Source: Gammaproteobacteria bacterium (GTDB taxonomy: Bacteria > Pseudomonadota > Gammaproteobacteria > Burkholderiales > Rhodocyclaceae). Taken from it: a stretch of DNA of 64,000 nt. The stretch lies in the NCBI GenBank assembly GCA_018828385.1, contig JAHJVE010000007.1:186001-250000 (forward strand), written 5' to 3'. Positions 3,958-63,955 of this stretch are shown in pieces (within the stretch, counting starts at the first letter, position 1; each line of letters opens with the position of its first letter). Made by a program: the position numbers and the translations under genes. Under the pieces are notes generated by a model. It did no database searches. It was not told the origin of the DNA and saw only the letters and a list, made by a program, of their open reading frames with translations.

Positions 3958-4404
3958 ATGCCTGAAGAAAGCCTGCACGTCGTCTGTCCGCACTGTTCCA
4001 CGGTCAACCGGATTTTTGGCCAAAAATTGAAAGATTCGCCCAACTGCGGCCAGTGCAAGCAGCCGCTGTTCAACGGCGAACCCGCCGAACTGACGGCCGC
4101 CAACTTCGACCGCCACATCTCGCGCAACGACCTGCCCGTTGTCGTCGATTTCTGGGCACCTTGGTGTGGCCCCTGCCGGCAGATGGCGCCGAATTTCCAC
4201 CAGGCTGCCATCGATCTCGAACCCTACGCCCGGCTGGTCAAGGTCGATACCGAAGCCGAACAGCAACTCGCCGCCCGCTTCAATATCCGCAGCATTCCGA
4301 CCCTGGCCATATTTATTAATGGCCGCGAGATCGCCCGCCAGAGCGGCGCGCTCGACCTCGGCTCGCTGAAACGCTGGATACAACCGCATCTCCACCAGCC
4401 TTAA
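3958..4404 (+). CDS. trxC: Thioredoxin 2 (zinc-ribbon thioredoxin)
   Basis: A cytosolic disulfide reductase of the TrxC type. The N-terminal zinc ribbon is CPHC (residues about 10-13) and CGQC (about 30-33), followed by a thioredoxin fold with active site WCGPC in VVVDFWAPWCGPCRQMAP. Length is 148 residues, as in E. coli TrxC (139). The start ATG at 3958 has a GGAG Shine-Dalgarno about 7 nt upstream; an in-frame TTG at 3946 is less likely. The stretch between the two zinc CxxC pairs is encoded by a copy of the dispersed repeat (3997-4032), yet the spacing between the cysteine pairs matches E. coli TrxC. Confidence 0.95.
   Translation: MPEESLHVVCPHCSTVNRIFGQKLKDSPNCGQCKQPLFNGEPAELTAANFDRHISRNDLPVVVDFWAPWCGPCRQMAPNFHQAAIDLEPYARLVKVDTEAEQQLAARFNIRSIPTLAIFINGREIARQSGALDLGSLKRWIQPHLHQP
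3997..4032 (-). repeat. Dispersed 37-bp repeat, copy A (inside trxC)
   Basis: Core read on the + strand is TTCCACGGTCAACCGG, then ATTTTTG, GCC and AAAAATTGAAA. It matches the family consensus apart from a T-tract in place of the first A-tract. It lies in frame in the TrxC zinc ribbon and encodes STVNRIFGQKLKD. Strand is given relative to the orientation in which the core comes last (GGTTGACCG). Confidence 0.8.
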
Positions 4405-4460
4405 CTTCTACCCCCGGCCGCCGTTAATGATGCATCCCAATGCATTCGACGGAGGCCACG

Positions 4461-5513
4461 ATGAAAATTGCCAGCAGCAGCCTGCAAATGGCCTCGTCGC
4501 ATGCCAGCGTCGAGCGCCATGAAGTCCGCGAATCGCTGAAAATGTGGGTCGGGCCGCAGCGCCCGCAGTTTGCCGGCGAAGAGTCGCGCCCCCGCCCGGC
4601 GCGCACCGACAACGTCAGCCTGTCCGATGCCGGCAAGGCGGCCAGCCAGGCCAGCGCCGGTGAAGCCGCCGAGGACGAGCTCGATGCCGATCCGCGGCTG
4701 CGTTTCATTCGCTCCATGCTCGAACTGCTGACCGGACACCGGATTCGCATTTTCGATGCCAGCGAACTCCAACCGAGTTCACAACCCCCAGCCATCGAAG
4801 CGCCACCGGCAACCGGCACACAGGCCCGCCCGACATCCGCCGGCTTCGGCATCGAGTACGACCGCCACGAGTCCTACAGCGAAGTCGAGCAAACGACGTT
4901 TTCTGCCAGCGGCACAGTCAAGACGGCCGATGGTCGCGAAATCAAATTCGACCTGCAGTTGTCGATGGCGCGCCAGTATCACGAAGAAAGCAATGTCAGC
5001 CTCCGTCTCGGCGATGCAGCACGCAAGGTCGATCCGCTCGTCCTCAACTTCGCCGGCACCGCGGCGCAACTGACCGACCAACGCTTCGCCTTCGACCTCA
5101 ATGCCGACGGCAGCACGGAAAACATCAACTTCCTGGCCCCGGGCAGCGGCTTCCTGGCTTTCGACCGCAACGGCGACGGCCGGATCAACGATGGCAGCGA
5201 ACTGTTCGGCCCGACCAGCGGCGACGGCTTTCAGGAATTGGCCGCACTCGATGGCGACCAGAACGGCTGGATCGATGAAAACGATGCGGCATTTAACCAG
5301 TTGTCGCTGTGGACACCTGACAAAATTGACAAAGACACGCTCCAGTCGCTGAGCGCTGCCGGCGTTGGTGCCATCGCGCTAAGCCGCATTGCTACGCCAT
5401 TTGACCTCAAGACAAATGCCAATGAGCTGCTCGGAGAAATTCGCACTTCTGGAATTTTTTTGCATGAAACAGGTACGGCTGGCACAATCCAGCAAATTGA
5501 TCTGACCGCCTAG
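4461..5513 (+). CDS. Uncharacterised protein with EF-hand-like calcium motifs
   Basis: I do not recognise a named family. The 350-residue protein has a charged, Ala/Pro-rich N-terminal 130 residues, then a beta-rich part and an acidic Ca-binding-like region. It has two EF-hand/dockerin-like loops, DRNGDGRINDGSE (from D235) and DGDQNGWIDENDAAF (from D264), preceded by a looser DLNADGSTEN. There is no signal peptide. The ATG at 4461 is preceded by GGAGG 5 nt upstream, so I prefer it to the in-frame ATG at 4440. It sits between trxC and a chemoreceptor. Similar proteins resemble RTX-associated calcium-binding proteins; the function is unknown. Confidence 0.8.
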   Translation: MKIASSSLQMASSHASVERHEVRESLKMWVGPQRPQFAGEESRPRPARTDNVSLSDAGKAASQASAGEAAEDELDADPRLRFIRSMLELLTGHRIRIFDASELQPSSQPPAIEAPPATGTQARPTSAGFGIEYDRHESYSEVEQTTFSASGTVKTADGREIKFDLQLSMARQYHEESNVSLRLGDAARKVDPLVLNFAGTAAQLTDQRFAFDLNADGSTENINFLAPGSGFLAFDRNGDGRINDGSELFGPTSGDGFQELAALDGDQNGWIDENDAAFNQLSLWTPDKIDKDTLQSLSAAGVGAIALSRIATPFDLKTNANELLGEIRTSGIFLHETGTAGTIQQIDLTA

Positions 5514-5546
5514 CTGAAAAATGGTCGCAGTAACAAGAGGAAGAAC

Positions 5547-7212: not shown

Positions 7213-8571
7213 TTACATCGGCGCCAGCTCGAGATCAAGGCCGCCGGCAGGGCGCGAGCCTCCCGGTCCAGCCTCGCTCCTGACAGCTGGCAAGCCCTGC
7301 GCAGCGGCGATGTGGTTCACTTCGCGCAGGCGCTTGATCATCCTGGTCAGCAGCGTATTGCGCATGCGTTCGAGAAGCTCTTCCGACGACAGGGCGAGTG
7401 CCGCCGCATTGACTTCGAGGAACAGCGTCGGCTCAAGGGTGACTGCCGTCGAACAACGCTGGTCACTGGACGGGTGCAGGTACGACACCTCGCCGATCGG
7501 CTCGCTGCGCCCCAGGCGGCACAGGGCCTTGCCTTCGATCGAGATCTCGACCGAGCCGCTGACGATGATGCCGAAGAACTTGTTGCGCTCGCCTTCGCGG
7601 ATGATCGCGACATTAGGCAGGATCTCGCGCCAGACCGAGACGCGGAGCACTTCCCAGATTTCGACGTTTTCGAACTCAACGAAGAATTCCAGCCCGCGCA
7701 AGGTCTCGAAATGGCTCATGTCCTGCGCGGTTTCGTCCTCTTCGAGGATTTGGTAGCGCACGGCCGACAGATCCTTGGCCATTTCGGCGCCATTCCGGTA
7801 GCGGCTGTAGAGATCCTTCTCCAGTGCCCGGCGCATGATGGCGTTGAGACCTTCCGGCAAGTTCGGGTTGAGCGCCGTGACGGCCGGCGCTTCGGTATTG
7901 ATGATGCGATAGACGAGCGTCGCCTGGTTGTTGGCGCGGAAAGGCAGGCGGCCGGTCAGGAGCTGGAACATGAGCACGCCGAGCGAATAGAGGTCGGTCT
8001 TCTGGTTGAGCGGATAGCCCTTGATCTGTTCCGGCGACATGTAGGCCGGCGAACCGACGCCCATGATGAAGGTCGAGTCGCGGTCCATGTCCTTGTTCAT
8101 GTTCAGGGCCAGACCGAAATCGGCGATTTTCGGCTCGTCGTTGGCGGCGATCATGATATTGGCCGGCTTGATGTCGCGGTGAATGATGCCCTGCCGGTAA
8201 GCCGCGTCGAGCGCCATGCAGCATTTGAAAATGATGCTGATGGCGCGATGCATGGGCAGCAGTTTGTCGATCCGGCAGTTGTCTTCAAGCGTGAAACCTT
8301 CGACATACTCCATGGCCAGATAGGCGAACTCCGGCTCGACCACGGCTTCGTAAACCTGAACGATGTTCGGGTGATTGAGGCGCTTGGAGACCATCCCCTC
8401 GTTCTGGAACAGCTTGCGCATGCGCCGCGACATGGCGGAACTGTCTTTCCCGAACTGGATCACCTTGACGGCGACCTGGCGGTTGGCATCCGGATCGTCA
8501 CAAAGGTAGACGGTCGCCGTCGCCCCCTTGCCCAGTTCCTTGATCACCCGGTATTTACCGATATATTCCAT
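7213..8571 (-). CDS. Ser/Thr protein kinase fused to a cyclic-nucleotide-binding-like domain
   Basis: 452 residues. The N-terminal Hanks-type kinase has glycine loop GKGATATV (14-21), Lys36 in VAVK, the catalytic HRDIKPAN (131-138) and the DFG metal site at 151-153. It is followed by SPAYMSPEQ and the LYSLGVLMFQLLTG helix. The C-terminal part (about 290-420) looks like a cNMP-binding/CRP-type beta-roll (FFGIIVSGSVEISIEGK, IGEVSYL). There is no transmembrane segment, so it is cytosolic. Coupling of a kinase to a nucleotide- or ligand-binding roll suggests allosteric control. It is convergent with the chemoreceptor gene; a partnership is only suggested by position. Confidence 0.92.
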   Translation of the reverse strand: MEYIGKYRVIKELGKGATATVYLCDDPDANRQVAVKVIQFGKDSSAMSRRMRKLFQNEGMVSKRLNHPNIVQVYEAVVEPEFAYLAMEYVEGFTLEDNCRIDKLLPMHRAISIIFKCCMALDAAYRQGIIHRDIKPANIMIAANDEPKIADFGLALNMNKDMDRDSTFIMGVGSPAYMSPEQIKGYPLNQKTDLYSLGVLMFQLLTGRLPFRANNQATLVYRIINTEAPAVTALNPNLPEGLNAIMRRALEKDLYSRYRNGAEMAKDLSAVRYQILEEDETAQDMSHFETLRGLEFFVEFENVEIWEVLRVSVWREILPNVAIIREGERNKFFGIIVSGSVEISIEGKALCRLGRSEPIGEVSYLHPSSDQRCSTAVTLEPTLFLEVNAAALALSSEELLERMRNTLLTRMIKRLREVNHIAAAQGLPAVRSEAGPGGSRPAGGLDLELAPM

Positions 8572-8652
8572 GCAGGATACGCCTCAGATACTCACGGAAT
8601 TATCGTAGCACGCAGGCTGCGGCAGGACAGCCAAAAATAATTCGTCCCGGCA

Positions 8653-8680
8653 CTTGAAAGAACAGTCAAAGCCCCCAGAT
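8653..8680 (+). promoter_or_regulatory. Sigma-32 heat-shock promoter of grpE
   Basis: CTTGAAA (8653-8659), a 13-nt spacer, then CCCCAGAT (8673-8680). This closely matches the RpoH consensus CTTGAAA/CCCCATnT. The grpE ATG lies 29 nt downstream. Confidence 0.85.
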
Positions 8681-8709
8681 AACGAAACAGTATTTTGGGA
8701 GAACAACGC

Positions 8710-9276
8710 ATGAGCAATAACGAAAACCCCCAGGAATCCTTGCTGGGCAATGAAACTGCGGCCGAACCCGCGATCACGCCGACGGCCGAAGCGCCGGCCG
8801 GGGAACACACCGATACCCTGCCCAGCGTCGAGGAGCAATTTCGCGCCCTCGAACTGAAAGCAGCAGAACATTACGACGCCTGGCTGCGCGCCAAGGCCGA
8901 GGGTGAAAACATCCGCCGCCGCGCCCAGGAAGACATTGCCAAGGCGCACAAATTCGCTGTCGAGCGTTTTGCCGGCGAACTGCTGGCCGTCAAGGACAGC
9001 CTCGAAGCGGCGCTGGCCGTGCCGGAGCAGACGGTGGAGAGCTTCAAATCCGGCGTCGAGCTGACACTGAAACAACTGGTTGCCGCTTTCGAGAAGAACG
9101 CGCTAATCGAAGTCAGCCCGGCTGGCGAGAAGTTCGATCCGCACAAGCACCAGGCCATCGGCATGGTCGATTCGGAGCAGGAAGCCAACACCGTCGTCAC
9201 CGTGCTGCAAAAGGGCTACACCATCGCCGACCGCGTGTTGCGTCCGGCCCTGGTCATGGTCGCCAAGGGCAAGTAA
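8710..9276 (+). CDS. grpE: Nucleotide exchange factor GrpE
   Basis: Releases ADP from DnaK. 188 residues with an acidic, disordered N-terminus, then the long helical dimerisation stretch ([35 protein letters not shown]) and the beta-domain ending [13 protein letters not shown]. The start ATG at 8710 has TGGGAGAA upstream; an in-frame TTG at 8695 overlaps that Shine-Dalgarno and is rejected. First gene of the grpE-dnaK-dnaJ chaperone cluster. Confidence 0.96.
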
Positions 9277-9279
9277 GCC

Positions 9280-9316
9280 TTTCAATTTCGGGCGTTTTTT
9301 CCGGTTGACCGTAGCA
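9280..9316 (+). repeat. Dispersed 37-bp repeat, copy B (grpE-dnaK gap)
   Basis: Full copy. Reverse-complement order is TGCTACGGTCAACCGG, AAAAAAC, GCCC and GAAATTGAAA. It begins 4 nt after the grpE stop and ends 5 nt before the -35 element of the dnaK promoter. Confidence 0.9.
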
Positions 9317-9320
9317 GTCC

Positions 9321-9348
9321 CTTGAAAACGGTTTGAACGCCCCCAATT
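9321..9348 (+). promoter_or_regulatory. Sigma-32 heat-shock promoter of dnaK
   Basis: CTTGAAA (9321-9327), a 13-nt spacer, then CCCCAATT (9341-9348). It has the same geometry as the grpE promoter, so dnaK has its own RpoH start in addition to any read-through from grpE. Confidence 0.85.
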
Positions 9349-9384
9349 CACGAACATCAGCAATTCACATTTAGGAAGAACATC

Positions 9385-11325
9385 ATGGGCAAGATCATCG
9401 GCATCGACCTCGGCACCACCAACAGCTGCGTCGCCATCATGGAAGGCGGCCAGCCGAAGGTTATCGAAAACGCAGAAGGCGCGCGCACCACGCCGTCCAT
9501 CATCGGCTACACCGAAGATGGCGAGATCCTGTGCGGCGCCCCGGCCAAGCGCCAGGCCGTGACCAACCCGAAGAACACGCTATACGCCGTCAAGCGCCTG
9601 ATCGGCCGCCGCTTCGAAGAGAAGGAAGTGCAGAAGGACATCTCGCTGATGCCCTTCAAGATCGTCAAGGCCGACAACGGCGACGCCTGGGTTGAAGCGC
9701 GCGACAAGAAAATCGCCCCGCCGCAGGTCTCGGCCGAAGTGCTGCGCAAGATGAAGAAGACCGCCGAAGACTACCTCGGCGAAGAAGTGACCGAAGCCGT
9801 CATCACCGTGCCGGCCTACTTCAACGACAGCCAGCGCCAGGCGACCAAGGACGCCGGCCGCATCGCTGGCCTCGAAGTCAAGCGCATCATCAACGAGCCG
9901 ACCGCTGCCGCCCTCGCCTTCGGCATGGACAAGACCAGCAAGAACGACCGCAAGATCGCCGTGTATGACCTCGGCGGCGGCACGTTCGACATCTCGATCA
10001 TTGAAATCGCCAACGTTGACGGCGAAACGCAGTTTGAAGTGCTGGCCACCAATGGCGACACCTTCCTCGGCGGCGAAGACTTCGACCAGCGCCTGATCGA
10101 CTACATCATCGACGAATTCAAGAAGGAATCCGGCGTCAACCTCAAGGCCGACGTGCTGGCCCTGCAGCGCCTGAAAGAAGCCGCTGAAAAGGCCAAGATC
10201 GAGTTGTCCTCCAGCCAGCAAACCGAAATCAACCTGCCCTACATCACCGCCGATGCATCCGGCCCGAAGCACCTGGCGCTCAAGGTGACCCGCGCCAAGT
10301 TCGAATCGCTGGTCGAGGAACTCGTCGAGCGCACCGTCGCTCCGTGCCTGACCGCGCTCAAGGATGCCGGCTGCAAGATCGGCGACATCGACGACGTCAT
10401 CCTCGTCGGCGGCCAGTCGCGCATGCCCAAGGTCCAGGACAAGGTCAAGGAAGTCTTCGGCAAGGAACCGCGCAAGGACGTCAATCCTGACGAAGCCGTC
10501 GCTGTCGGCGCGGCCATCCAGGGCGGCGTGCTGCAGGGCGAAGTCAAGGACGTGCTGCTCCTCGACGTGACCCCGCTCTCCCTCGGTATCGAAACCCTGG
10601 GCGGCATCATGACCAAGCTGATCAAGAAGAACACGACGATCCCGACCAAGGCCTCGCAAGTCTTCTCGACCGCCGACGACAGCCAGTCCGCCGTGACCAT
10701 CCACGTCCTTCAGGGCGAGCGCGAAGTCGCTGCCGGCAACAAGAGCCTCGGCCAGTTCAACCTCGAAGGCATCCCGCCGGCCCCGCGCGGCACGCCGCAG
10801 ATCGAAGTCATCTTCGACATCGACGCCAACGGCATCATGCACGTGACGGCCAAGGACAAGGCTACCGGCAAGGAAAACAAGATCACCATCAAGGCCAACT
10901 CCGGTCTGTCGGAAGAAGAAATCCAGGCCATGGTCAAGGATGCTGAACTGCACGCCGAAGACGACAAGAAGGCGCACGAGCTGGCCGATGCCCGCAACCA
11001 GGCCGACGGCATGGTGCACATGGTCAAGAAGTCGCTGACCGAGTACGGCGACAAGCTCGACGCCGCTGAAAAGGAAGCCATCGAAGCCGCCATCAAGGAT
11101 GTCGAGGACGTGCTGCGCGACGGCGACAAGGAAACCATCACCGCCAAGACCGAAGCCCTGTCGGCCGCCGCCCAGAAGCTCGGTGAAAAGATGTACGCCC
11201 AGCAACAGGCTGAAGGCGCTGCCGCCGGTGCGGCCGGCCAGCAGGCCGAAGGTGGTGAGAAGACCGTCGAAGGCGATGTCGTCGATGCCGAATTCACGGA
11301 AGTGAACAAGGACAAGAAAGCTTAA
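9385..11325 (+). CDS. dnaK: Chaperone DnaK (Hsp70)
   Basis: An ATP-driven cytosolic chaperone of 646 residues. The sequence shows [17 protein letters not shown] at the start, [46 protein letters not shown] and the interdomain linker region [19 protein letters not shown]. The C-terminus is Ala/Gly-rich with the usual acidic end (VDAEFTEV). It has its own sigma-32 promoter and lies between its cochaperone genes. Confidence 0.98.
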
Positions 11326-12573: not shown

Positions 12574-12613
12574 CAGCCCTGGCCTCCCGGACTTTTTCGG
12601 GACGCCGGGGCTG
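12574..12613 (+). terminator. Rho-independent terminator after dnaJ
   Basis: Outer stem CAGCCCTGGC / GCCGGGGCTG and inner stem TCCCG / CGGGA, followed by TTTCATTTTT. The T-rich tail is itself the start of repeat copy C. Confidence 0.85.
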
Positions 12614-12649
12614 TTTCATTTTTGGCCTTTTTCCCGGTTGACCGTGGCA
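12614..12649 (+). repeat. Dispersed 37-bp repeat, copy C (after the dnaJ terminator)
   Basis: Reverse-complement order is TGCCACGGTCAACCGG, GAAAAAG, GCC and AAAAATGAAAC, about one base shorter than consensus. Its T-rich end doubles as the U-tract of the dnaJ terminator, as terminator-associated uptake sequences do in other bacteria. Confidence 0.85.
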
Positions 12650-12741
12650 TTGAACAAAAAGCCGAAAGTCCGGCCAGCCCTGTTCCCCGTACCATCCCCG
12701 ACTGTTAGAATCATCCGATCCATCTAAGGGGGAGACAAAAA

Positions 12742-18912: not shown

Positions 18913-19637
18913 TCTTCTTCATCTCTGATCTGCACCTGTCGCCCCGGTCACCCGGGGCGACTCGTTTGTTCCTGAGTTTTCTGGCCGGCCGCGCCCGCCA
19001 GGCCGAGGCGCTGTACATCCTTGGCGACCTGTTCGAGGTGTGGGTCGGCGACGATATCGACGATCCTTACGCCGCGCAGATCACCGCCGCCCTGCGCGCC
19101 GCCAGCGACGCCGGGCTGAAGATCTGCTTCATGCACGGCAACCGCGATTTCGCCATCGGCGAGCAATTCACCGCTGCCGCCGGCATGACGCTGCTGCCCG
19201 ATCCTTATTTGCTGGTCCTGCCCGAGTGGTCCTTCGTGCTCTCGCACGGCGACGCCCTGTGCATCGACGACCACGCCTACATGGCCTATCGGGCCAAGGT
19301 GCGCGATCCGGAATGGCAGCGGAAGATGCGCGCCAAGCCGCGTTTCCTGCGCAGCCTGCTCGGTCGCTACATCCGCTGGCGCAGCGCCCGCCGCAAGCGC
19401 GACCACGCCTACGTTTACGCCGACCTCAACGGCCCGGCGACCGACGATTTCCTGCGCGAACACGGCTACGCGACCTTCATTCACGGCCACACCCACCGGC
19501 CGGAAAAACACGACCACATCGTCGATGGTATCCACGTCGAACGCTGGGTATTGTCCGACTGGCACGAAGAGCGCGCCGAAGCGCTGCTCTGGGATGGCGA
19601 GCAGTTAAGCCGCGAAGCCATCACTTTTGAAAATTGA
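18909..19637 (+). CDS. lpxH: UDP-2,3-diacylglucosamine diphosphatase
   Basis: Cleaves UDP-2,3-diacylglucosamine to lipid X in lipid A synthesis, at the inner membrane face. The metallophosphatase motifs are present: [32 protein letters not shown] and HGHTHRP. 242 residues. The start is a TTG overlapping the ppiB stop by 4 nt; no ATG is available at the right position. Its stop codon lies inside repeat copy D. Confidence 0.94.
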
Positions 19638-19647
19638 GCAAAATTTC

Positions 19648-19662
<15 letters not shown>
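19624..19662 (+). repeat. Dispersed 37-bp repeat, copy D (lpxH stop / recQ start)
   Basis: Reverse-complement order is TGCTACGGTCGACACG, AAATTTT, GCTC and AATTTTCAAAAG. It spans the lpxH stop (19635-19637) and supplies both candidate start codons of recQ. Confidence 0.8.
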
Positions 19663-21483
<1,821 letters not shown>

Positions 21484-21486: not shown

Positions 21487-22119
21487 GTGAACCGCGACAC
21501 CCTGAACGCCTTACTGGCCGCCATCGTCATCGCGGCACTCGTCGTTTCGGGCATTGCCCCGTTCGACCGCGCAACCTGGGTCATGGAAGTGGCGCCGGTG
21601 CTCATCGCCCTGCCGCTCATGATCGCCACGCGCCAAAGCTATCCGCTAACGATGCTGCTCACGGTGCTGATCGCCGTCCACGCCGTCGTGCTGATTGCCG
21701 GCGGCGCCTACACCTACGCCCGCGTGCCGCTCGGTTTCTGGCTGCAGGACCTGCTCGGCACGGTGCGCAATCCCTACGACAAGATCGGCCATTTACTGCA
21801 GGGCTTCGTCCCGGCCATGGTGGCGCGTGAAATCCTGGTCCGCGGCGGTTACGTCGTCGGCCGCCGGATGACAGGTTTCCTGTGCATCTGCATCGCCATG
21901 GCGATCAGCGCCAGTTACGAGCTCATCGAGTGGGCCGCGGCGCTGGCCATGGGCCAGGGCGCCGATGAATTCCTCGGCACCCAAGGCGACCAGTGGGATA
22001 CGCAATCGGACATGTTCATGGCACTGATCGGATCGAGCGCGGCGATGGTCCTGCTTTCCGGCTGGCATGACCGGCAGCTCAAAGCCCTGATTTCAAAAAT
22101 GGGCAAGATTTCCGGTTGA
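21487..22119 (+). CDS. DUF2238 (YjdF-like) membrane protein
   Basis: 210 residues with a GTG start 4 nt after recQ. About five or six hydrophobic helices (ALLAAIVIAALVVSG, VAPVLIALPLMIA, MLLTVLIAVHAVVLIAG, FLCICIAMAISASYELIEW) and the family signature ASYELIEW...DEFLGTQGDQWDTQSDM. An inner membrane protein of unknown function. The last residues (KMGKISG) are encoded by repeat copy E. Confidence 0.88.
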   Translation: MNRDTLNALLAAIVIAALVVSGIAPFDRATWVMEVAPVLIALPLMIATRQSYPLTMLLTVLIAVHAVVLIAGGAYTYARVPLGFWLQDLLGTVRNPYDKIGHLLQGFVPAMVAREILVRGGYVVGRRMTGFLCICIAMAISASYELIEWAAALAMGQGADEFLGTQGDQWDTQSDMFMALIGSSAAMVLLSGWHDRQLKALISKMGKISG

Positions 22120-22126
22120 CCGTAGG
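22091..22126 (+). repeat. Dispersed 37-bp repeat, copy E (between convergent genes)
   Basis: Reverse-complement order is TCCTACGGTCAACCGG, AAATCTT, GCCC and ATTTTTGAAAT. It covers the stop codon of the DUF2238 gene and fills most of the 33-nt gap to the convergent DUF3334 gene. No separate terminator is visible there. Confidence 0.85.
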
Positions 22127-22152
22127 AATCGCTGGCCAAACGTCGTTGCCAG

Positions 22153-22876: not shown

Positions 22877-23944
22877 TCAGCGCAAATGCTGCTCGGCCAC
22901 GGCCGACAATTCGACGGACAGGGTTCCTGTCGCCATGGCGCGGCGTAGCGACTCCTTCGCCTCGGCAACATGCCCGTCGGCCTCCTGCGCCAGACCAAGC
23001 CCGAGCCACCAGCGCCCCTCGTTGGGCGCCAGGCGGGTGGCCCGCTGATAATGTGCCACAGCGGCGCGGCTGGCGCCCTGACGCGACTTGATATGCCCCT
23101 GGAACCCGGCATAGTCGGCGTTGGCCTCGGCATAAACCTGCGAGCGGGCCAGGGTGCGATCAGCCGCCGCAATGTCCTGCTGCTCGAGTTGCAGGCGGGC
23201 CAGCGACATCGCCCACCCGGTCTGCGCCGGCTGGAGCCCAAGCCCCTCCTCGAGCGCGCTCATCGCCTCGTCGATCTTGCGCATTTCCAGCAACTGACGC
23301 AGCAGCAAATGGCGAGCCTGGACGTAGGACGGATCCTGTTTCAGCGCCGCCCGCAAACCGGCGACAGCGTCGGCGTGGCGGCCGGCCGCGATGGCGTTTT
23401 CCGCCTTGCGATATTCGGCATCGGCGCGGTCGCGCGGCGTCGCCAGCACCGGACTCTTTTCGATTTTGACCGGCCCGCCCGACGCATTCGGTGCCACCGG
23501 CGACGGCTTGGCTGGCGCCGGTGCCTCGGCTGCCAGCGCCGGCACCACCGGATCCGGCACGGCCAGGACGGGCGCCACCGGCAGGGGCAGAACGGCGAGG
23601 TTCGAAGCCAGACGCAGTTCGCTTTCCAGAATTGGCTCTTTTTTCTCGTCGACCGTAGCAACCGGCACTACCGCCGGCGGCGCGGCAACCACCGGCACGG
23701 CAGCGGGCGCCACGGCCACCGGCGTCTGGTCAGCAATGCCCAGCCACGGCAGCAAGGTTCCGTTGGCGTGCAGCGCCGCTGCGCCGAGCACCGGCACGGC
23801 AACGATCAGCAGAGGAATCAGCCAGCGCCCGCCGCCACTCGGCGCCGCCGGCAACGAACGGATTTCACGTTGCAGGTTTTGCCGGGCCGGATCGTCGGGG
23901 CGCTTGGCCTCGATGTTGCGCAGCATGTCGTTGATCAGGCTCAT
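22877..23944 (-). CDS. mshN: MSHA biogenesis protein MshN (TPR)
   Basis: 355 residues. The N-terminal MSLINDMLRNIEAKRPD is the MshN signature. It is followed by a single membrane helix (WLIPLLIVAVPVLGAAAL), a long Ala/Pro/Val-rich periplasmic linker and TPR repeats in the C-terminal half (ALKQDPSYVQARHLLLRQLL, RATRLAPNEGRWWLGLGLAQ). An inner-membrane assembly factor of the MSHA pilus. Part of the linker (VATVDEKKEPILESE) is encoded by repeat copy F. Confidence 0.92.
   Translation of the reverse strand: MSLINDMLRNIEAKRPDDPARQNLQREIRSLPAAPSGGGRWLIPLLIVAVPVLGAAALHANGTLLPWLGIADQTPVAVAPAAVPVVAAPPAVVPVATVDEKKEPILESELRLASNLAVLPLPVAPVLAVPDPVVPALAAEAPAPAKPSPVAPNASGGPVKIEKSPVLATPRDRADAEYRKAENAIAAGRHADAVAGLRAALKQDPSYVQARHLLLRQLLEMRKIDEAMSALEEGLGLQPAQTGWAMSLARLQLEQQDIAAADRTLARSQVYAEANADYAGFQGHIKSRQGASRAAVAHYQRATRLAPNEGRWWLGLGLAQEADGHVAEAKESLRRAMATGTLSVELSAVAEQHLR
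23623..23660 (+). repeat. Dispersed 37-bp repeat, copy F (inside mshN)
   Basis: Reverse-complement order is TGCTACGGTCGACGAG, AAAAAAG, AGCC and AATTCTGGAAAG. It lies in frame in the disordered linker of MshN. Confidence 0.8.
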
Positions 23945-23945
23945 C

Positions 23946-24773: not shown

Positions 24774-24795
24774 GGCTGCCCGCCTCCGCTGCCGT

Positions 24796-29177: not shown

Positions 29178-29183
29178 TGTCCC

Positions 29184-29194
29184 AACACCTTAAG
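29184..29194 (-). promoter_or_regulatory. Motif shared by the mshI and mshE leaders
   Basis: On the coding strand CTTAAGGTGTT lies 6 nt before the mshI ATG; the identical 11-mer lies 12 nt before the mshE ATG (40314-40324). AAGGTG may act as the Shine-Dalgarno, but the full 11-nt identity exceeds what that needs. Confidence 0.45.
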
Positions 29195-29245
29195 TTTTTT
29201 CAGAAGGATAGCCAGTAACGCATTATTTTTCAAGGGTTTTCACAA

Positions 29246-33448: not shown

Positions 33449-33461
33449 TCCCACCCCCCGT

Positions 33462-33950
33462 TCAGCAGTCATAAGGCGCCGTCGCTATCAACGGATCCCG
33501 GCATTTTTCCAGCGTCACCTCGACCTGCCGCTCGATGCCCGGCGCCTTGACGCCGGCGGCGGTTGCTTGCGAAACGATACGGTAGATGCGGAGTTGCCGG
33601 GCGCCTTCGGTCGTATCCCAGCTCTGGCAAGTGACCGTCACGGCATGCCCCGGGATGGCTGGCGTGCCATTGACGCAAGCCGGCAACCCGGCGCCCTGGG
33701 CGTTCGGGTCGAGTTGGAACATGCCCCACTCGGCGCCGGCCCGCGCCGCCTGATAGGCCCGCGCGCCACCGATGTCGGCGGCCTGGTTTACATGCGCCGT
33801 CGATACGACATTGGCGATGACGGCGGCCAGAATCGACATCAGCAACAGCAGGAAGACGCCGGTGATGATCGAGACACCGTGCTGGCGTCGCCGCGGGGAA
33901 ATTCCCGAATCCCACGGTCGACCGGAAAAAATGGGCAAATTTGAAATCAT
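33462..33950 (-). CDS. mshP: MSHA biogenesis protein MshP
   Basis: 162 residues, pilin-like. The N-terminus is a long basic leader, then QHGVSIITGVFLLLLMSILAAVIANV, the MshP hydrophobic segment, which lacks the usual Glu5. The rest is a small pseudopilin-type domain (AYQAARAGAEWGMFQL). The start ATG overlaps the mshO stop (ATGA). The first 13 or so residues (MISNLPIFSGRPW) are encoded by repeat copy H. Confidence 0.9.
   Translation of the reverse strand: MISNLPIFSGRPWDSGISPRRRQHGVSIITGVFLLLLMSILAAVIANVVSTAHVNQAADIGGARAYQAARAGAEWGMFQLDPNAQGAGLPACVNGTPAIPGHAVTVTCQSWDTTEGARQLRIYRIVSQATAAGVKAPGIERQVEVTLEKCRDPLIATAPYDC
33911..33948 (-). repeat. Dispersed 37-bp repeat, copy H (mshO stop / mshP leader)
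   Basis: On the + strand TCCCACGGTCGACCGG, AAAAAAT, GGGC and AAATTTGAAAT. It covers the start of mshP and part of the mshO stop. Confidence 0.85.
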
Positions 33951-34765
33951 GGCGTGTTCTGTACATCGACCTGATGCAGCAGCTCGACCGATTCGCCGTT
34001 GCGCGTCAGCGTCAGACGCAGGACGACCAGCCCGTTGCGCTGGAGAATCGCCGGCACGTAGTTGAAGGCGCAGAAAGTCACGTTGTCGGCCATGACCGCG
34101 GCGACGCCGCCCAGCGCGCCAAAGGCGACGGGCTGCGCGGCAAGGAAACCGTAGCCGGAATGGCGAAGCAACGTATTTCCAGCGCACTCATAGGTCACCG
34201 GCGCACCGACGATCTGGAAGCGGTTTTGCGGCGAGGCCAGCGGAAATTGGGTACCGGCCGGGTCAAAGGTGATGTTGTTGAGGCCGGCACCCGGCGTCGC
34301 AGTCCGCCGACTGGTACCTTCATAAACATCGGAACCGGGCTGGCCAAGGTTGAAAACAACCAGCTCATGGCCGGCGGGGATGGTCACCGACGGGCCGAGC
34401 ACATCGAAGGTGCTGTCACTGTTGCTGGCGAAATTCAGAATATCGCCGCCACCGGTTGAATTGAGCTCGGCCCGGTAGCGGCCGGCATCGCGAATCGGCA
34501 CGAATTCGAGAAAGTTGCCGGAGAGGCGCACGCTGTTGGGCAACGCCGCCTGCAGTTCGCGGGCGATCCGGCGCAGGGTCGTATCGGCCGCATCCGACAG
34601 TTCGGCCCGGTTGCCGGCATCGATATAGGCGTCGACCTGGCCGCGCCCGAACATCGCCACCATCGAAACGATAATGCCGGTGATGACAATCGAAATGATC
34701 ATCTCGACCAGTGTGAAGCCACGGTCAACCCGAAAAAACGGCCGAAAATCAAATGCGCGGCGCAT
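33947..34765 (-). CDS. mshO: MSHA biogenesis protein MshO (minor prepilin)
   Basis: 272 residues. Type IV prepilin signal: leader MRRAFDFRPFFRVDRG, then FTLVEMIISIVITGIIVSMVAMFG, with the G/F cleavage site and Glu5. The large C-terminal domain is PilW/MshO-like (ADTTLRRIARELQAALPNSVRL). Starts inside mshD (17-nt overlap). Most of the leader (FDFRPFFRVDRG) is encoded by repeat copy I. Confidence 0.92.
   Translation of the reverse strand: MRRAFDFRPFFRVDRGFTLVEMIISIVITGIIVSMVAMFGRGQVDAYIDAGNRAELSDAADTTLRRIARELQAALPNSVRLSGNFLEFVPIRDAGRYRAELNSTGGGDILNFASNSDSTFDVLGPSVTIPAGHELVVFNLGQPGSDVYEGTSRRTATPGAGLNNITFDPAGTQFPLASPQNRFQIVGAPVTYECAGNTLLRHSGYGFLAAQPVAFGALGGVAAVMADNVTFCAFNYVPAILQRNGLVVLRLTLTRNGESVELLHQVDVQNTP
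34716..34753 (-). repeat. Dispersed 37-bp repeat, copy I (mshD stop / mshO leader)
   Basis: On the + strand AGCCACGGTCAACCCG, AAAAAAC, GGCC and GAAAATCAAAT. It contains the mshD stop codon and encodes the MshO leader up to the prepilin cleavage glycine. Confidence 0.85.
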
Positions 34766-35863: not shown

Positions 35864-35875
35864 TGCGTCGCTGCA

Positions 35876-36274: not shown

Positions 36275-36298
36275 CACCAACTCCTAAAAATTAAAAAA

Positions 36299-36901: not shown

Positions 36902-36922
36902 ATTCACTTTCCTTCTCAACAC

Positions 36923-37351: not shown

Positions 37352-37358
37352 GGCCGCA

Positions 37359-38585: not shown

Positions 38586-38591
38586 GCCGGC

Positions 38592-40301: not shown

Positions 40302-40313
40302 CCCGACCTCCAA

Positions 40314-40428: not shown

Positions 40429-41703
<1,275 letters not shown>

Positions 41704-50087: not shown

Positions 50088-50700
50088 CGGCTTTCCGTAC
50101 GGCCGCCACGAAGGCAGCGATTTTCGAGTGATCCTTGATTCCCTTGCTCATTTCGACGCCGGACGAGACATCGACCGCCACCGGGCGCACGCGCCGTACG
50201 GCTTCATCGACATTTGCTACGGTCAACCCGCCGGAAAGCACCAAAAACGAAGGAAGATCCGGCGGAATCAGCGTCCAGTCGAAGACATGGCCACCGCCGC
50301 CGTAGCCCTCGACAAAGGCATCCAGCAACAGCCCCCGGGCATCGGGAAACGAGCCGGCGAATTCTACCAGATCAAGCCCCGGCCTCACCCGTGCCGCCCG
50401 CAGATAGGGCCGGGCGAACTGGCGGCAATAAGCTGCATCCTCGTCGCCGTGAAATTGCAGGATGTTGATAGGCAGGGCTTCGCAGGCAGCGCGGACGACT
50501 TCCGGCGCTTCGTTCACGAAGAGGCCGACGACATCGACAAAAGGCGGAATTCTCCGGGCCAGTTCGGCGGCACGCTGTAGGGTAACGTAACGCGGACTGG
50601 GCGGATAGAAGACGAAGCCGATTGCATCGGCACCAGCCGCGACGGCCGCATCGACATCTTCTTCGCGGGTCAGGCCACAGATTTTGATCCGTGTTTTCAT
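50074..50700 (-). CDS. trpF: Phosphoribosylanthranilate isomerase
   Basis: Third step of tryptophan synthesis. 208 residues with [28 protein letters not shown] (catalytic Cys) and [27 protein letters not shown] (catalytic Asp). The core of partial repeat copy L coincides with the SGGLTVAN codons, a place where the family itself is conserved as SGGL-x-x-x-N. trpF-B-A are a tight operon. Confidence 0.96.
50216..50250 (-). repeat. Dispersed repeat, partial copy L (inside trpF)
   Basis: TGCTACGGTCAACCCG on the + strand, then CCGGAAAGCACC and AAAAACGAAGG. A good core with a displaced A-rich flank. The core overlaps a conserved TrpF motif, so chance is not excluded. Confidence 0.45.
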
Positions 50701-50711
50701 GAATTCTTGAC

Positions 50712-50748
50712 TCCTACGGTCAACCGAAAAAAACGGCCAAAATTGAAA
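50712..50748 (-). repeat. Dispersed 37-bp repeat, copy M (truA-trpF gap)
   Basis: On the + strand TCCTACGGTCAACCGA, AAAAAAC, GGCC and AAAATTGAAAT. Near-consensus and non-coding, just upstream of trpF. Confidence 0.92.
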
Positions 50749-50763
50749 TCGTTGCCGCCCAAC

Positions 50764-58654: not shown

Positions 58655-60061
58655 TTACAGAACGTCGCGCACGTCGGCGAAACGACCGGCAATCGCGGCG
58701 GCGGCGGCCATTGCCGGGCTGACCAGATGAGTCCGTCCGCCCGGACCCTGACGGCCTTCGAAATTGCGGTTGGAGGTCGAGGCACAACGCTCGCCCGGTT
58801 CCAGACGGTCGGCATTCATCGCCAGACACATCGAACAACCCGGTTCACGCCATTCGAAACCAGCCGCGATGAACACCTTGTCCAGCCCTTCCGCTTCGGC
58901 CTGACGCTTGACCAGGCCGGAACCCGGGACGGCCAGGGCCAGCTTGACGGTCGCGGCGACATGACGCCCCTTCAGCACACCTGCCGCCTCACGCAAATCT
59001 TCGATGCGTGAGTTGGTGCAGGAGCCGATGAAGACCTTGTCGATGGCGATCTGGTTGATCGGCGTATTGGGATTGAGACCCATGTATTGCAGGGCGCGTT
59101 CCATGCCTTCGCGTTTGACCGGATCGGCCTGCTTGGCCGGATCGGGAACGACGGCGTCGATGGCAACGACCATTTCGGGCGAAGTACCCCAAGTCACCTG
59201 CGGACGAATCTCTTCGGCCTTCAGCGTGACGATGCGGTCGAACTGCGCGCCGGCGTCAGAATGCAGCGTGCGCCAATAGGCGACCGCTTGTTCCCAGACG
59301 TCACCCTTCGGTGAGAACGGGCGGCCTTTCAAATAATCGATGGTTTTGTCGTCGACCGCAACGAAGCCCATGCGCGCACCGCCTTCGATGGCCATGTTGC
59401 ACAGGGTCATGCGACCTTCCATGCTCAGGCCGCGAATGGCGCTGCCGCCGAATTCGATGGCGTAGCCGTTGCCGCCGGCCGTGCCGATGGTGCCGATGAT
59501 GGCCAGCGCCACATCCTTGGCGGTGACGCCTTTGCCGAGCTTGCCGTCGACGGCGATCAGCATGGTCTTCGATTTCTTTTGCAGCAGGCACTGGGTGGCC
59601 AGCACGTGCTCGACTTCCGAGGTGCCGATGCCGTGCGCCAGACAGGCAAAGGCGCCGTGCGTTGAGGTATGCGAATCACCGCAAACGACCGTCATTCCGG
59701 GCAGCGTGGCACCATTTTCCGGACCAACGACGTGCACAATGCCCTGCCGCGCGTCCTTGAACGGGAAGTAGGCCAGCGCGCCGACTTCGCGGATATTGTC
59801 ATCCAGCGTTTGCACTTGCTGACGCGAAACCGGGTCCTTGATGCCTTCGTCCCAGTGATCGGTCGGCGTATTATGGTCGGCCGTCGCGACGATGGACGAG
59901 ATGCGCCACGGCTTGCGGCCGGCCAGCTTGAGGCCTTCGAAAGCCTGCGGGCTGGTGACTTCATGCACGAGGTGACGATCAATATAGAGAAGGGCCGTGC
60001 CATCAGCTTCCTGATGGACGACGTGGTTCTCCCAAAGCTTGTCGTAAAGGGTCTTCGACAT
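58655..60061 (-). CDS. leuC: 3-isopropylmalate dehydratase large subunit
   Basis: Aconitase-family [4Fe-4S] enzyme of leucine synthesis. 468 residues with [46 protein letters not shown] and [13 protein letters not shown] (cluster cysteines). First gene of leuC-lipoprotein-leuD-leuB-asd. Confidence 0.97.
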
Positions 60062-60091: not shown

Positions 60092-61276
60092 TTATTGCAC
60101 AGGATCTTTCGTTTTTGCCCTGTTTTCCCGGTTGACCGTAGCATTCGCACCGACCCAGCCCCAGACCAGCACGAAGCCGACCAGCGCGAACAGCGAACCG
60201 AGGGTAAAGGTCCAGCCGGAACCCAGCGAATCCCAGGTTCGGCCGCTGATCAGCGCGCCGAGCAAGCCGCCGGCGCCGAACGACAGGCTGGAATACAGCG
60301 CCTGCCCCCGTCCTTGCGCCCGGCCCGGAAACCACTGATTCACCGCAGCAATGGAAGCCGCGTGGTAGGCGCCGAATGTCAGGCCATGCAGTAGCTGGAC
60401 GACAATCATGATGGTAGCCGACTCGACGCCCCAGCCCATGAGCAGGAAGCGAACAATCGCCGCGCCAAAACTGGCGAGCAGGATGGCCCGCAGCGAGAAT
60501 CGTCGTGACAGCCGGGCCATGAACATGAAGACGGCGATTTCAGCCACCACGCCGAGCGACCAGAGCAAGCCGACCTCTGTCTTCGAATAGCCGTGGGCAT
60601 CAAGGTGAATCGAGTAAAAAACGTAGAACGCGCCATGTGCCGCCGACATCGCGAAGCAGGCGGTCATCAGCGCGATCACTTTCGGCTGACGCAGGATTTC
60701 GCCAATTGGCTGAACCCCGCTGTGCTCAACCAACGTCGCCTCGGGCAAGGTCAGCGCATAGAGCAAGATTCCCACGAGAATCCCCCAGCACACCCAAACC
60801 ACGCCGACCGGCGGCGCCATGTCGAGCAACGCGCCGGTCCCCATCACGGCGACGATGAAGCCGATTGAACCCCACAAGCGGATGCGGCTGTAACGGCCAC
60901 GCTCTTCGCGCAGATGGTCGAAAGTCAACGTCTCGACCAACGGCAACGCAGCACTCCAGAAGAAGGCCAGGATAGCCATCGCCAGCAGCATGCCGGGCAA
61001 TTTGTCGAGCCAGAAAAAGGCGGTGAATCCGGCCAGACCGATCACTGCCGCCAGTCGGATGATCGCCATGCGCCGACCGAAATGGTCAGCCAGCCAGCCC
61101 CACAAATTGGGTCCAAAAAGGCGCATCAACTGCATCTGCGACATCAGCAGACCGATGTCCCAGGCAGAAAAATTCAGGGATTGGAGATAGAGCCCGAAAT
61201 AGGGGGAGAAGGCGCCAATGAAGGCGAAATAGAAAAAGTAGTAGCCCGAGAGGCGCCAGTAAGGCAATGCATGCAT
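60092..61276 (-). CDS. Major facilitator superfamily transporter (HcaT/MFS_1-like)
   Basis: 394 residues with about twelve hydrophobic helices. N-terminal WRLSGYYFFYFAFIGAFSPYFGLYL and NLWGWLADHFGRR (the MFS loop 2-3 motif) fit the HcaT/lacY-related sugar-proton group. Substrate cannot be assigned. The cytoplasmic C-terminus (after residue about 375) is encoded by repeat copy N. Confidence 0.86.
   Translation of the reverse strand: MHALPYWRLSGYYFFYFAFIGAFSPYFGLYLQSLNFSAWDIGLLMSQMQLMRLFGPNLWGWLADHFGRRMAIIRLAAVIGLAGFTAFFWLDKLPGMLLAMAILAFFWSAALPLVETLTFDHLREERGRYSRIRLWGSIGFIVAVMGTGALLDMAPPVGVVWVCWGILVGILLYALTLPEATLVEHSGVQPIGEILRQPKVIALMTACFAMSAAHGAFYVFYSIHLDAHGYSKTEVGLLWSLGVVAEIAVFMFMARLSRRFSLRAILLASFGAAIVRFLLMGWGVESATIMIVVQLLHGLTFGAYHAASIAAVNQWFPGRAQGRGQALYSSLSFGAGGLLGALISGRTWDSLGSGWTFTLGSLFALVGFVLVWGWVGANATVNRENRAKTKDPVQ
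60107..60143 (+). repeat. Dispersed 37-bp repeat, copy N (MFS C-terminus)
   Basis: Reverse-complement order is TGCTACGGTCAACCGG, GAAAACA, GGGC and AAAAACGAAAG. It encodes ATVNRENRAKTKD, the last residues of the MFS carrier, and ends 46 nt before leuC. Confidence 0.88.
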
Positions 61277-62897: not shown

Positions 62898-63344
62898 TCA
62901 GGCCTCCTGGTCAGTTGGCCAGTTCTTGATATAGCTCTTCAGCATCTTGTTCTCGAAACTCTGCTCCTCAAGCACCGCCTTGGCCACATCGAGAAACGAG
63001 ATGACGCCCATCAGCGTGCCCTCTTCGACGACCGGCAGATATCGCGAGCGCTTTTCGATCATGAGCCGACGCAGGTCGTTCGCCTCCATATCGGGATAGG
63101 CGGTCACCGGATGCGTAACCATGACATCGCCGACGGTCAGACTTTCTGCCGTTGCCGCCTTGCCCTTGAGAGCCATGAGAACTTCGCGGAAGGTCAGCAT
63201 GCCGACCATCTTGCCGCCATCCATGACCACCAGCGAGCCGACATCGAGGTCGGCCATGCTATCCACAGCAAAAGCCAGAGACTGTTGCGGCGCAACTGTA
63301 AACAACGTTCCGCCCTTGACCCGCAGTATTTCCCGAACCTGCAT
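62898..63344 (-). CDS. CBS-domain protein
   Basis: 148 residues made of two CBS modules (FTVAPQQSLAFAVDSMADLDVGSLVVMDGGK and VGDVMVTHPVTAYPDMEANDLRRLMIEKRSRYLPVV). Such stand-alone CBS pairs bind adenosine nucleotides and act as small sensors. Start ATG 63344 has GGGAGAG upstream; a GTG at 63359 is less likely. Single gene with its own terminator. Confidence 0.88.
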   Translation of the reverse strand: MQVREILRVKGGTLFTVAPQQSLAFAVDSMADLDVGSLVVMDGGKMVGMLTFREVLMALKGKAATAESLTVGDVMVTHPVTAYPDMEANDLRRLMIEKRSRYLPVVEEGTLMGVISFLDVAKAVLEEQSFENKMLKSYIKNWPTDQEA

Positions 63345-63614
63345 TGCGCTCTCCCGCACTCGGTTTTAATTGGTCGGATGATCTTAGAGCATCCTCCGCA
63401 ATTCGGAAAGGATAACGGCACTTCTCGTCTCGCATAAGGTCGAAGGGCTATGGCAAGAGCACCAGGTGTTACAAAAAGTCACGCGAATTTAACAAATTTA
63501 TTGGCATTGCCACTTGCGAAATGTCATAACCATCTATACACTTGGTCATATCACCTAAGGCATATATCGCTAGGATGCTTGGGTAACCCTATTACACTAG
63601 CGTATGGAGATTGA
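63345..63614. promoter_or_regulatory. Regulatory region between the CBS and HTH genes
   Basis: 270 nt, A/T-rich toward the HTH gene. It contains the palindrome TGGCATTGCCA (63502-63512), an inverted pair AATTT/AAATT at about 63486-63498 and a loose promoter-like pair TTGCGA (63514) and TATACA (63535) with a 15-nt spacer. The palindrome could be an operator for the downstream HTH protein. Confidence 0.4.
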
Positions 63615-63923
63615 ATGATGTCTAACGTTAAAACCATCGAGAAAATCGACGCTCGTGAAATCCGTCGCAAGCTTGGCCTGAACCAGCAACAGTTCTGGTC
63701 CACCCTCGGCGTCACGCAGAGTGGCGGTTCCCGCTACGAAAGCGGCCGCAACATGCCGAAGCCGGTGCGCGAATTGCTGCGTCTGGTTCATGTCGAACAA
63801 GTCGATATCAAGAACATCAAGCGCGACGATATCGAAGTCGTCGAATATTTGAAGTCTCAGGAACCGGAGCTGTTCAAGTCCCTGAAGAAATCGGCTCGCG
63901 CTCACGCCAAAAAAGCGGCCTGA
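63615..63923 (+). CDS. Small helix-turn-helix DNA-binding protein (Xre/Cro type)
   Basis: 102 residues. The HTH lies at about residues 14-50 (IRRKLGLNQQQFWSTLGVTQSGGSRYESG), followed by a helical basic tail ending KSARAHAKKAA. No toxin, phage or partner gene is adjacent within the window. GGAG lies 5 nt before ATG 63615 (8 nt before the second ATG 63618). It may bind the upstream palindrome; target unknown. Confidence 0.82.
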   Translation: MMSNVKTIEKIDAREIRRKLGLNQQQFWSTLGVTQSGGSRYESGRNMPKPVRELLRLVHVEQVDIKNIKRDDIEVVEYLKSQEPELFKSLKKSARAHAKKAA

Positions 63924-63955
63924 TTTTTGCCCCGAAAGGGGCGTCGACCGTAGCA
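63921..63955 (+). repeat. Dispersed repeat, partial copy O (after the HTH gene)
   Basis: Reverse-complement order is TGCTACGGTCGACGCC, CCTTTCG, GGGC and AAAAATCAG. The core is good but the first A-tract is replaced by a GCCCC-GAAA-GGGGC hairpin. It starts within the stop codon of the HTH gene. Confidence 0.65.

What the first reader, a model, noticed from the sequence alone, without database searches (positions are those of the whole stretch)
3997..63955. Dispersed 37-bp repeat resembling a DNA uptake signal (core plus two phased A/T tracts)
The unit is TGCTACGGTCRACCGG, then AAAAAA plus one base, a 4-nt G/C block, then AAAATTGAAA(T). I count 11 good copies (3997, 9280, 12614, 19624, 22091, 23623, 33911, 34716, 41777, 50712, 60107) and 4 partial (33406, 40457, 50216, 63921), on both strands, about one per 4-6 kb. 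The 9-mer ACGGTCRAC would be expected about once in 64 kb by chance; I see 16, of which only two (near 27604 and 47282) lack A/T flanks. The two A/T blocks are centred about one helical turn apart. Pasteurellaceae uptake sequences have that same layout, a core followed by two A/T tracts. Copies sit in intergenic DNA, at stops and starts, near terminators and in frame inside genes. There are no inverted ends or target duplications, so it does not look like a transposon.
Basis: partly seen in the sequence, partly recalled or inferred. Interest (0 to 1): 0.93.

Follow-up and report, generated by a model that had tools for sequence, protein, structure and literature searches.

The report
Genome-wide DNA uptake signal in Azonexus
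A roughly 40-base sequence, estimated at about 1,100 copies in this bacterium's genome (probably an Azonexus) and present in several dialects in its genus, is likely a tag by which the cells would recognise and take up their own kind's DNA, which would be only the third such system known.

Summary
The repeat is real and genome-wide. All 11 'good' window copies score 41-63 bits with a matrix trained outside the window. The genome holds 623 near-matches to a 17-base stretch; the reversed control has 2. A 595-kb sample extrapolates to about 1,100 copies. In the genus, probably Azonexus, matches run from 0 to 586 per genome (76 genomes), in at least three dialects; elsewhere in the order they are at background. 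About 55% of copies lie in genes, with a frame preference. Several genic copies replace motif-less sequence without gaps. The consensus carries 43 bits where 13 would suffice. A sister species with a frameshifted comEC has lost the motif. A 33.6-kb island in another relative's comEC lacks it. No Y1 transposase was found. Best reading: an independently evolved DNA uptake sequence, laid out like the Pasteurellaceae USS but in Betaproteobacteria. Not shown: uptake, competence, receptor. comEC status does not sort the genus in general.

The parts
3993..4033 (+). motif copy inside gene 3946-4404 (trxC-like by eye), in frame
   Evidence: 42.6 bits; relative G035 has an ungapped, motif-less orthologous stretch; encodes STVNRIFGQKLK
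9279..9319 (-). motif copy, grpE-dnaK spacer
   Evidence: 56.9 bits; orthologs in 5 of 7 relatives score 31-57 bits, G089 and G080 lack the whole stretch (alignments)
12612..12652 (-). motif copy, downstream of a dnaJ-like gene
   Evidence: 44.8 bits; 45-53 bits in G090, G105, G117, none in G035 and G089
19625..19665 (-). motif copy at the start of gene 19627-21483 (recQ-like by eye)
   Evidence: 43.8 bits; same-length motif-less ortholog in G035
22090..22130 (-). motif copy at the end of gene 21487-22119
   Evidence: 52.7 bits; 47-48 bits in G090 and G105
23623..23663 (-). motif copy inside gene 22877-23944, in frame
   Evidence: 44.9 bits; absent from the orthologs in G105, G090 and G035; encodes ATVDEKKEPILE
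33907..33947 (+). motif copy at the start of gene 33462-33950 (MSHA-like operon by eye)
   Evidence: 56.6 bits; G089 and G080 have a shorter, motif-less stretch
34714..34754 (+). motif copy at a junction of pilin-like genes
   Evidence: 41.2 bits; same-length motif-less orthologs in G080 and G089
40454..40494 (+). weaker motif copy, 3' end of gene 40429-41703 (DEAD-box helicase by eye)
   Evidence: 27.6 bits
41776..41816 (-). motif copy, intergenic, strongest in the window
   Evidence: 62.7 bits; 54-63 bits in G090, G105, G117
50212..50252 (+). marginal copy inside gene 50074-50700 (trpF-like by eye)
   Evidence: 11.9 bits, below the 15-bit threshold; ungapped motif-less orthologs in 4 relatives
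50709..50749 (+). motif copy in the spacer 50700-50764
   Evidence: 51.6 bits
59326..59366 (-). doubtful copy inside gene 58655-60061 (leuC-like by eye)
   Evidence: 15.4 bits; may be chance in a conserved gene
60106..60146 (-). motif copy, C-terminal coding end of gene 60092-61276 (MFS-like by eye)
   Evidence: 52.8 bits; encodes ATVNRENRAK
63918..63958 (-). weaker motif copy at the end of gene 63615-63923
   Evidence: 22.4 bits

Best explanation
The repeat is likely a DNA uptake signal: a polar ~41-bp site (core TGCTACGGTCRACCGG, then two A/T tracts 11-13 bp apart) predicted to be bound by a surface receptor of a type IV-pilus competence machine, so that DNA of the cell's own kind would be taken up preferentially. 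Shown here: the site is genome-wide and lies on both strands; no replication polarity was seen on one complete relative. In the genomes searched it is confined to one genus, where matches range from 0 to 586 per genome, and it comes in dialects, including a symmetric one with two A/T tracts on each side. Several genic copies stand where relatives have ungapped, motif-less sequence, and sense copies prefer a frame encoding TVN or TVD. It is absent from a 33.6-kb island in a relative and decayed in a sister species whose comEC is frameshifted. Inferred: the receptor prefers such fragments, ComEC imports them and recombination fixes them, so copies accumulate and are repaired by molecular drive; the A/T tracts would stiffen or bend the DNA for entry, as proposed for the USS. 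The receptor is unknown; a minor pilin or another surface protein shared by the motif-bearing species is the most likely place to look.
For: Copy number: 623 against 2 in the reversed control; 156 matrix sites in 601 kb against 0, 154 after removing duplicates, about 1,114 extrapolated. Unsupervised word count: 13 of the 14 listed top ten-mers in G000 are motif words, z up to 45.6. Over-specification: 43.0 bits against 12.9 needed. Evenness: variance 4.2, mean 5.2 per 20 kb in 29 windows; 85 exact sites on the complete G090 chromosome show no half-chromosome strand bias, p 0.93. 86 of 156 sites genic at 87.8% coding; 32 of 49 sense sites in one frame. Ungapped absence: 14 of 33 motif-less orthologs keep the spacing within 1 base, 8 of 25 without the two weak sites 50210 and 59323 (trxC-like alignment). 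Genus restriction: 18 of 76 genus genomes have at least 100 matches; 7 of 7 family members of other genera have 0 and 386 other order members at most 4. Dialects. G035, sister of G000 inside a clade whose other members have 539-586 matches, has 5, a comEC split between two frames, and keeps 1 of 11 orthologous sites against 10 of 14 in G090, 11 of 14 in G105 and 11 of 12 in G117. G002: 0 sites in the 33.6-kb comEC island against 8.7 expected, 7 in 26.4 kb of flanks. ComEC is intact in G000.
Against: No uptake or transformation data; I found no report of competence in this group. comEC status does not sort the genus: of 31 genus genomes with 10 or fewer matches, 23 have an unbroken Competence-domain match, 3 (G035, G108, G018) an in-contig break, 1 (G006) a match at a contig edge and 4 none found; G008, with a stop in comEC, has 73 matches, and G002 keeps 546 despite its disrupted comEC. 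No receptor found: a ComP_DUS pilin occurs in motif-rich and motif-poor genomes alike, and G090, with the same motif as G000 and G105, carries it in a differently built cluster; the PilA-like pilin of G000 is not tied to the motif either. 19 of 33 motif-less orthologs do show length changes, including whole-motif indels between genes. A near-palindromic core also fits a dimeric intracellular protein. Site strand differs between contigs in G000 (p 0.026). Only one dialect core was searched order-wide, so other motifs elsewhere would be missed.
Confidence: 0.8

Rival explanations
1. A genome-wide binding site of an intracellular chromosome-organising or nucleoid protein (a dimer on the near-palindromic CGGTCRACCG core, helped by A-tracts), unrelated to DNA uptake.
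For: The core is nearly palindromic and fully so in the G081/G031 dialect; the spread is even. A-tracts in nucleoid-protein sites: recalled.
Against: 43 bits where 13 suffice; matches differ between sister species, 543 against 5; no strand polarity in G090; about half the copies inside genes with a frame preference. Absence from the island would fit this too, so it does not discriminate.
Confidence: 0.12
2. A mobile or copied short repeat (REP/MITE-like) that spreads by a transposase.
For: Very strong consensus; whole-motif length differences between relatives at the grpE-dnaK spacer, 33907 and 50709.
Against: No Y1 (RAYT-type) transposase match in the genome; 86 of 156 copies in genes; at several genic sites relatives have ungapped, motif-less codons; dialects differ genome-wide. 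I saw no target duplications in the alignments read, but did not test for them systematically.
Confidence: 0.04
3. A regulatory or termination element (transcription factor site or terminator half) selected at gene ends.
For: 57 of 156 copies intergenic and 13 straddling gene ends, an excess over the 12% non-coding share; one G081 copy read is a perfect 40-bp inverted repeat.
Against: 86 copies are inside genes; 43 bits of information and a 100-fold difference between sisters are not expected of regulatory sites.
Confidence: 0.04

Closest known systems
Uptake signal sequence (USS) of Pasteurellaceae (Hin type AAGTGCGGT, Apl type ACAAGCGGT)
   Same: Core followed downstream by two A/T tracts about one helical turn apart; CGGTC in the core (the G117 dialect reads TGCGGTCAAC, containing GCGG); the second tract AAAATTGAAAT resembles the Apl segment AAAATTTTGCAAAT (PMC1626085, passage); many copies, dialects, point-mutation origin, over-strong consensus, underrepresented in acquired DNA (PMC1626085 and PMC7811141, passages), weaker and rarer where competence genes are broken (H. 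ducreyi, PMC1626085, passage).
   Different: Probably Betaproteobacteria, not Pasteurellaceae; the G000 consensus has ACGG rather than GCGG; the first tract begins about 8 bases after CGGT rather than just 3' of the core; lower density (~0.26/kb against about 1/kb); a symmetric dialect with tracts on both sides; uptake bias not shown.
DNA uptake sequence (DUS) of Neisseriaceae (GCCGTCTGAA and dialects), receptor ComP
   Same: Same class (Betaproteobacteria, if the host is Azonexus); genome-wide with dialects; a PF16732 ComP_DUS pilin is present in the genome.
   Different: The consensus is not related to GCCGTCTGAA; DUS has no flanking A/T motifs and extends to about 13 nt (PMC1626085 and PMC12616744, passages/introduction); the ComP_DUS pilin sits in differently built clusters in relatives that share this motif, so it is not supported as the receptor.
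REP/RAYT repeats
   Same: Hundreds of short dispersed copies with a strong consensus.
   Different: No Y1 transposase, half the copies genic, several genic sites ungapped against motif-less orthologs. REP features are recalled.

Membership tests
Pasteurellaceae USS | 9-nt core AAGTGCGGT or ACAAGCGGT with inner core GCGG | tested here: not met
   G000 matrix reads TACGGTCAAC; of six genomes' dialects read, only G117 contains GCGG
Pasteurellaceae USS | two A/T tracts downstream of the core, about 12 positions apart | tested here: met
   tracts at +12..17 and +23..28 (to +32) from the A of ACGG; definition from PMC1626085 and PMC12616744. The distance of the first tract from the core differs.
Pasteurellaceae USS | host in Pasteurellaceae | tested here: not met
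   GrpE relatives that bear a name: Azonexus, Dechloromonas, Quatrionicoccus; Azonexus is Rhodocyclales, Azonexaceae
Neisseriaceae DUS | motif related to GCCGTCTGAA (inner core CTG) | tested here: not met
   G000 consensus lacks CTG; G117 has CTG inside CTGCGG but not in the DUS context
uptake sequences as a functional class | hundreds to thousands of copies in the genome, both strands | tested here: met
uptake sequences as a functional class | dialects within the group | tested here: met
   TAC form in G000, G090, G105; TGC form in G117; symmetric form in G081, G031; six genomes read, tree
uptake sequences as a functional class | arise by point mutation, not insertion | tested here: inconclusive
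   14 of 33 motif-less orthologs length-preserving (8 of 25 without two weak sites), but 19 of 33 show length changes, several of them whole-motif indels between genes
uptake sequences as a functional class | underrepresented in recently acquired DNA | tested here: met
   0 sites in a 33.6-kb island, 8.7 expected; one island only
uptake sequences as a functional class | organism is naturally competent and takes up motif DNA preferentially | not testable with these tools
   needs an uptake experiment; comEC is intact in G000
uptake sequences as a functional class | a receptor that binds the motif | tested here: inconclusive
   17 N-methyl pilin matches in G000, 14 over the cut-off, one a ComP_DUS; the two pilin families compared across genomes do not track the motif
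REP/RAYT | Y1 (RAYT) transposase in the genome | tested here: not met
   PF01797: 0 matches at E 0.001 in G000, 5 of 14 control genomes ring

The most novel reading that the evidence does not exclude
A third, independently evolved self-DNA recognition system for natural transformation, in environmental Azonexus. It has converged on the Haemophilus layout (CGGTC core plus two phased A/T tracts) although its host is nearer to Neisseria, it uses a receptor that is neither the known ComP nor ComN, and within one genus it has switched between a one-way signal and a symmetric two-way signal with tracts on both sides.
Probability: 0.6. Interest if true: 0.93.

Novelty: new variant of a known kind. 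Interest (0 to 1): 0.87.

Why it matters
[quoted passage not shown] A third, independent case within one genus, with species ranging from 0 to 586 matches and readable dialects, would let long-open questions (do uptake sequences spread by drive or by selection, what do the A/T tracts do, how do receptor and motif co-evolve) be tested by comparing close relatives. Convergence on core-plus-phased-A/T-tracts would point to a shared mechanical need of DNA entry. It might also offer a way to transform Azonexus/Dechloromonas-type environmental bacteria.

Tried and rejected
Considered and rejected. (1) Replication-polar element (KOPS/Chi-like, recalled): the listed strands looked biased for G081, but the sequence shows both strands, and 85 exact sites on the complete G090 chromosome show no polarity. 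In G000, 84 sites lie on the G-rich and 70 on the C-rich strand, p 0.29. Contig heterogeneity in G000 (p 0.026) is left unexplained. (2) REP/RAYT. (3) The PilA-like pilin of G000 as receptor: near full-length relatives (68 bits or more) occur in 24 of 76 genomes by my count of the listed rows, motif-rich and motif-poor; motif-rich G096, G012, G110 and G117 have none. (4) The ComP_DUS pilin as receptor. (5) comEC integrity as a genus-wide predictor: does not hold. (7) Paper searches for the motif letters and for uptake sequences or competence in Dechloromonas, Azonexus, Rhodocyclaceae, Rhodocyclales and betaproteobacteria listed nothing relevant. The listed papers holding such a genus name were checked by passages: PMC7593972 has Azonexus only in a reference, PMC3364145 has Dechloromonas only in a list of genera, PMC12649708 only as a correlate of resistance genes. 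Only listed rows were seen otherwise; many subscription papers and bioRxiv preprints are not held.

Limits: other competence genes (comEA, pilQ, dprA, comM) were not searched for. Gene calls are from my own simple caller. Apart from GrpE, ComEC, the pilins and the recombinases, gene names are my reading of the translated starts, without a family search. Searches count 156 sites, two of them duplicates from overlapping stretches (154). The dnaK tree rests on one gene and 52 of 76 genomes. The spacing test covers the window only, 15 sites and 7 relatives. The word count had 60-160 kb per relative; the top words in motif-poor G086, G108, G035 and G080 reach z 5.7-8.8, while the motif in only 60 kb of G105 reaches 9.9, so a weak signal there could be missed.
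Full report
Observation. The 9-mer ACGGTCRAC occurs 17 times in the window against 0.95 expected. Over 601 kb of this genome there are 156 sites at 15 bits or more, 124 at 30 or more, only 9 between 8 and 15, and none in the reversed control. The consensus is gATGCTACGGTCAACCGG-AAAAAA-N-GGCC-AAAATTGAAAT.

Genome and genus. The genome (4.30 Mb, 24 contigs) has 290 + 333 matches to ACGGTCRACCGGAAAAA with up to 2 mismatches, and 2 + 0 for the reversed pattern. The 154 unique sites in about 595 kb extrapolate to about 1,114. The host's GrpE is closest to proteins named Azonexus, Dechloromonas or Quatrionicoccus where an organism is given; Azonexus is Rhodocyclales, Azonexaceae. So the genus is probably Azonexus in the broad sense. 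Among 76 genus genomes, 18 have at least 100 matches to ACGGTCRACCGNAAAA (1 mismatch), 31 have 10 or fewer and 27 are between. Among 399 genomes of the order, the seven of other genera in the family have none and 386 others have at most 4. The 24 order relatives and 20 named genomes including Zoogloea and Accumulibacter have at most 4 matches to the 17-base pattern with 2 mismatches. A motif unrelated to this core would not be seen by these searches.

Dialects. An unsupervised word count puts the motif first in G000 (13 of 14 listed ten-mers) and finds TGCGGTCAACCGG in G117 and CACGGTCGACCG in G081 and G031. In motif-poor G086, G108, G035 and G080 the top words reach z 5.7-8.8 and are not related to it (60-160 kb each). 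In G081 the site is symmetric: 39 matches give two phased A/T tracts on each side of ACGGTCGACCGT. G000 keeps only a trace of the left half.

Where the copies sit and how they arise. 86 sites lie in genes, 57 between genes and 13 straddle ends, in sequence that is 87.8% coding; for comparison, a passage of PMC2346458 quotes 65% genic for H. influenzae USS at ~86% coding. Sense-strand genic copies prefer one frame (32 of 49); 26 of 28 rows listed at 25 bits or more read TVN or TVD, 12 of them followed by R, two rows being one site. In the trxC-like gene the relative G035 has the same stretch without a gap and without the motif. Over the window's 15 sites and 7 relatives, 14 of 33 motif-less orthologs keep the spacing within one base; leaving out the two weak sites 50210 and 59323 it is 8 of 25. 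The other 19 show length changes. At the grpE-dnaK spacer the motif is present or absent as a whole stretch. So substitution is seen in genes, and between genes turnover by indel is common.

Information. The motif carries 43.0 bits; locating that many sites needs 12.9. A passage of PMC1626085 calls the very strong USS consensus anomalous for a binding site. Counts per 20 kb are slightly more even than random (mean 5.2, variance 4.2), and 85 exact sites show no half-chromosome strand bias on G090.

Link to transformation. G000 has an intact 772-aa ComEC. G035 is its sister in a dnaK tree (support 97/98) within a clade whose other members have 539-586 matches. G035 has 5, its comEC reads in two frames, and only 1 of 11 orthologous sites survives, against 10 of 14 (G090), 11 of 14 (G105) and 11 of 12 (G117). 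This parallels H. ducreyi in PMC1626085 (passages). In G002 a 33.6-kb island with a large serine recombinase splits comEC near codon 255; the island has no motif (8.7 expected from the G000 density), its 26.4 kb of flanks have 7. comEC is interrupted at the same place in G108, and the G018 match starts there. Against this: of the 31 genus genomes with 10 or fewer matches, 23 have an unbroken Competence-domain match, and G002 keeps 546 matches, which I read as a recent insertion.

Receptor. G000 has 17 N-methyl pilin matches, 14 over the cut-off. One, heading a minor pilin cluster, matches Pfam ComP_DUS (42.5 bits, cut-off 27.3). So does one pilin from each of the eight other genomes tested, motif-rich or not, and G090 has its own in a differently built cluster although it shares the motif. 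I therefore do not name a receptor.

Reading. An uptake signal explains these together: genome-wide abundance, dialects, motif-less codons replaced in genes, over-specification, island avoidance and decay beside a broken comEC. It works like a USS but is not a member of the USS or DUS families by sequence or host. PMC12616744 (introduction) states that only Neisseriaceae and Pasteurellaceae are known to do this; my paper searches (with checks in 70-72) listed no report for this group. Uptake, competence and receptor remain to be shown.

Noticed in passing
G002:C33 about 109609-143235 (L328-L330); L331-L332 (G108); L333 (G018): comEC is interrupted at about codon 255 by a ~33-kb genomic island with a large serine recombinase in two species, and the G018 comEC match begins at the same place: an integration site inside a competence gene.
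   Followed up: partly
L155 (G035:C1:1950001-1970000), 8341-10654: comEC of a close relative reads in two frames (frameshift) in a single-contig genome that has also lost the motif.
   Followed up: yes
window 22877-40313: A long MSHA-like pilus operon (label by eye) with five N-methyl pilin matches lies in the window; motif copies sit within it.
   Followed up: no
L163 and L259 versus L258: The type IV minor pilin cluster differs in build between relatives with the same motif (G000/G105 against G090).
   Followed up: partly
L160:8726-9073: A short (115 aa) PilA-like pilin with four cysteines, with near full-length relatives in 24 of 76 genus genomes.
   Followed up: partly
L016 (G000:C4:1-20000): A 20-kb stretch whose genes look like metal efflux and resistance genes (by eye) has no motif copy (about 5 expected); possibly acquired DNA.
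   Followed up: no
L173:19005-19025 (G081): One copy of the symmetric dialect is a perfect 40-bp inverted repeat that could double as a terminator.
   Followed up: no
G000 contig C6: Sampled sites on contig C6 are mostly on one strand (23 of 30) while the sample is nearly balanced (70 and 84); contig heterogeneity p 0.026, unexplained.
   Followed up: partly
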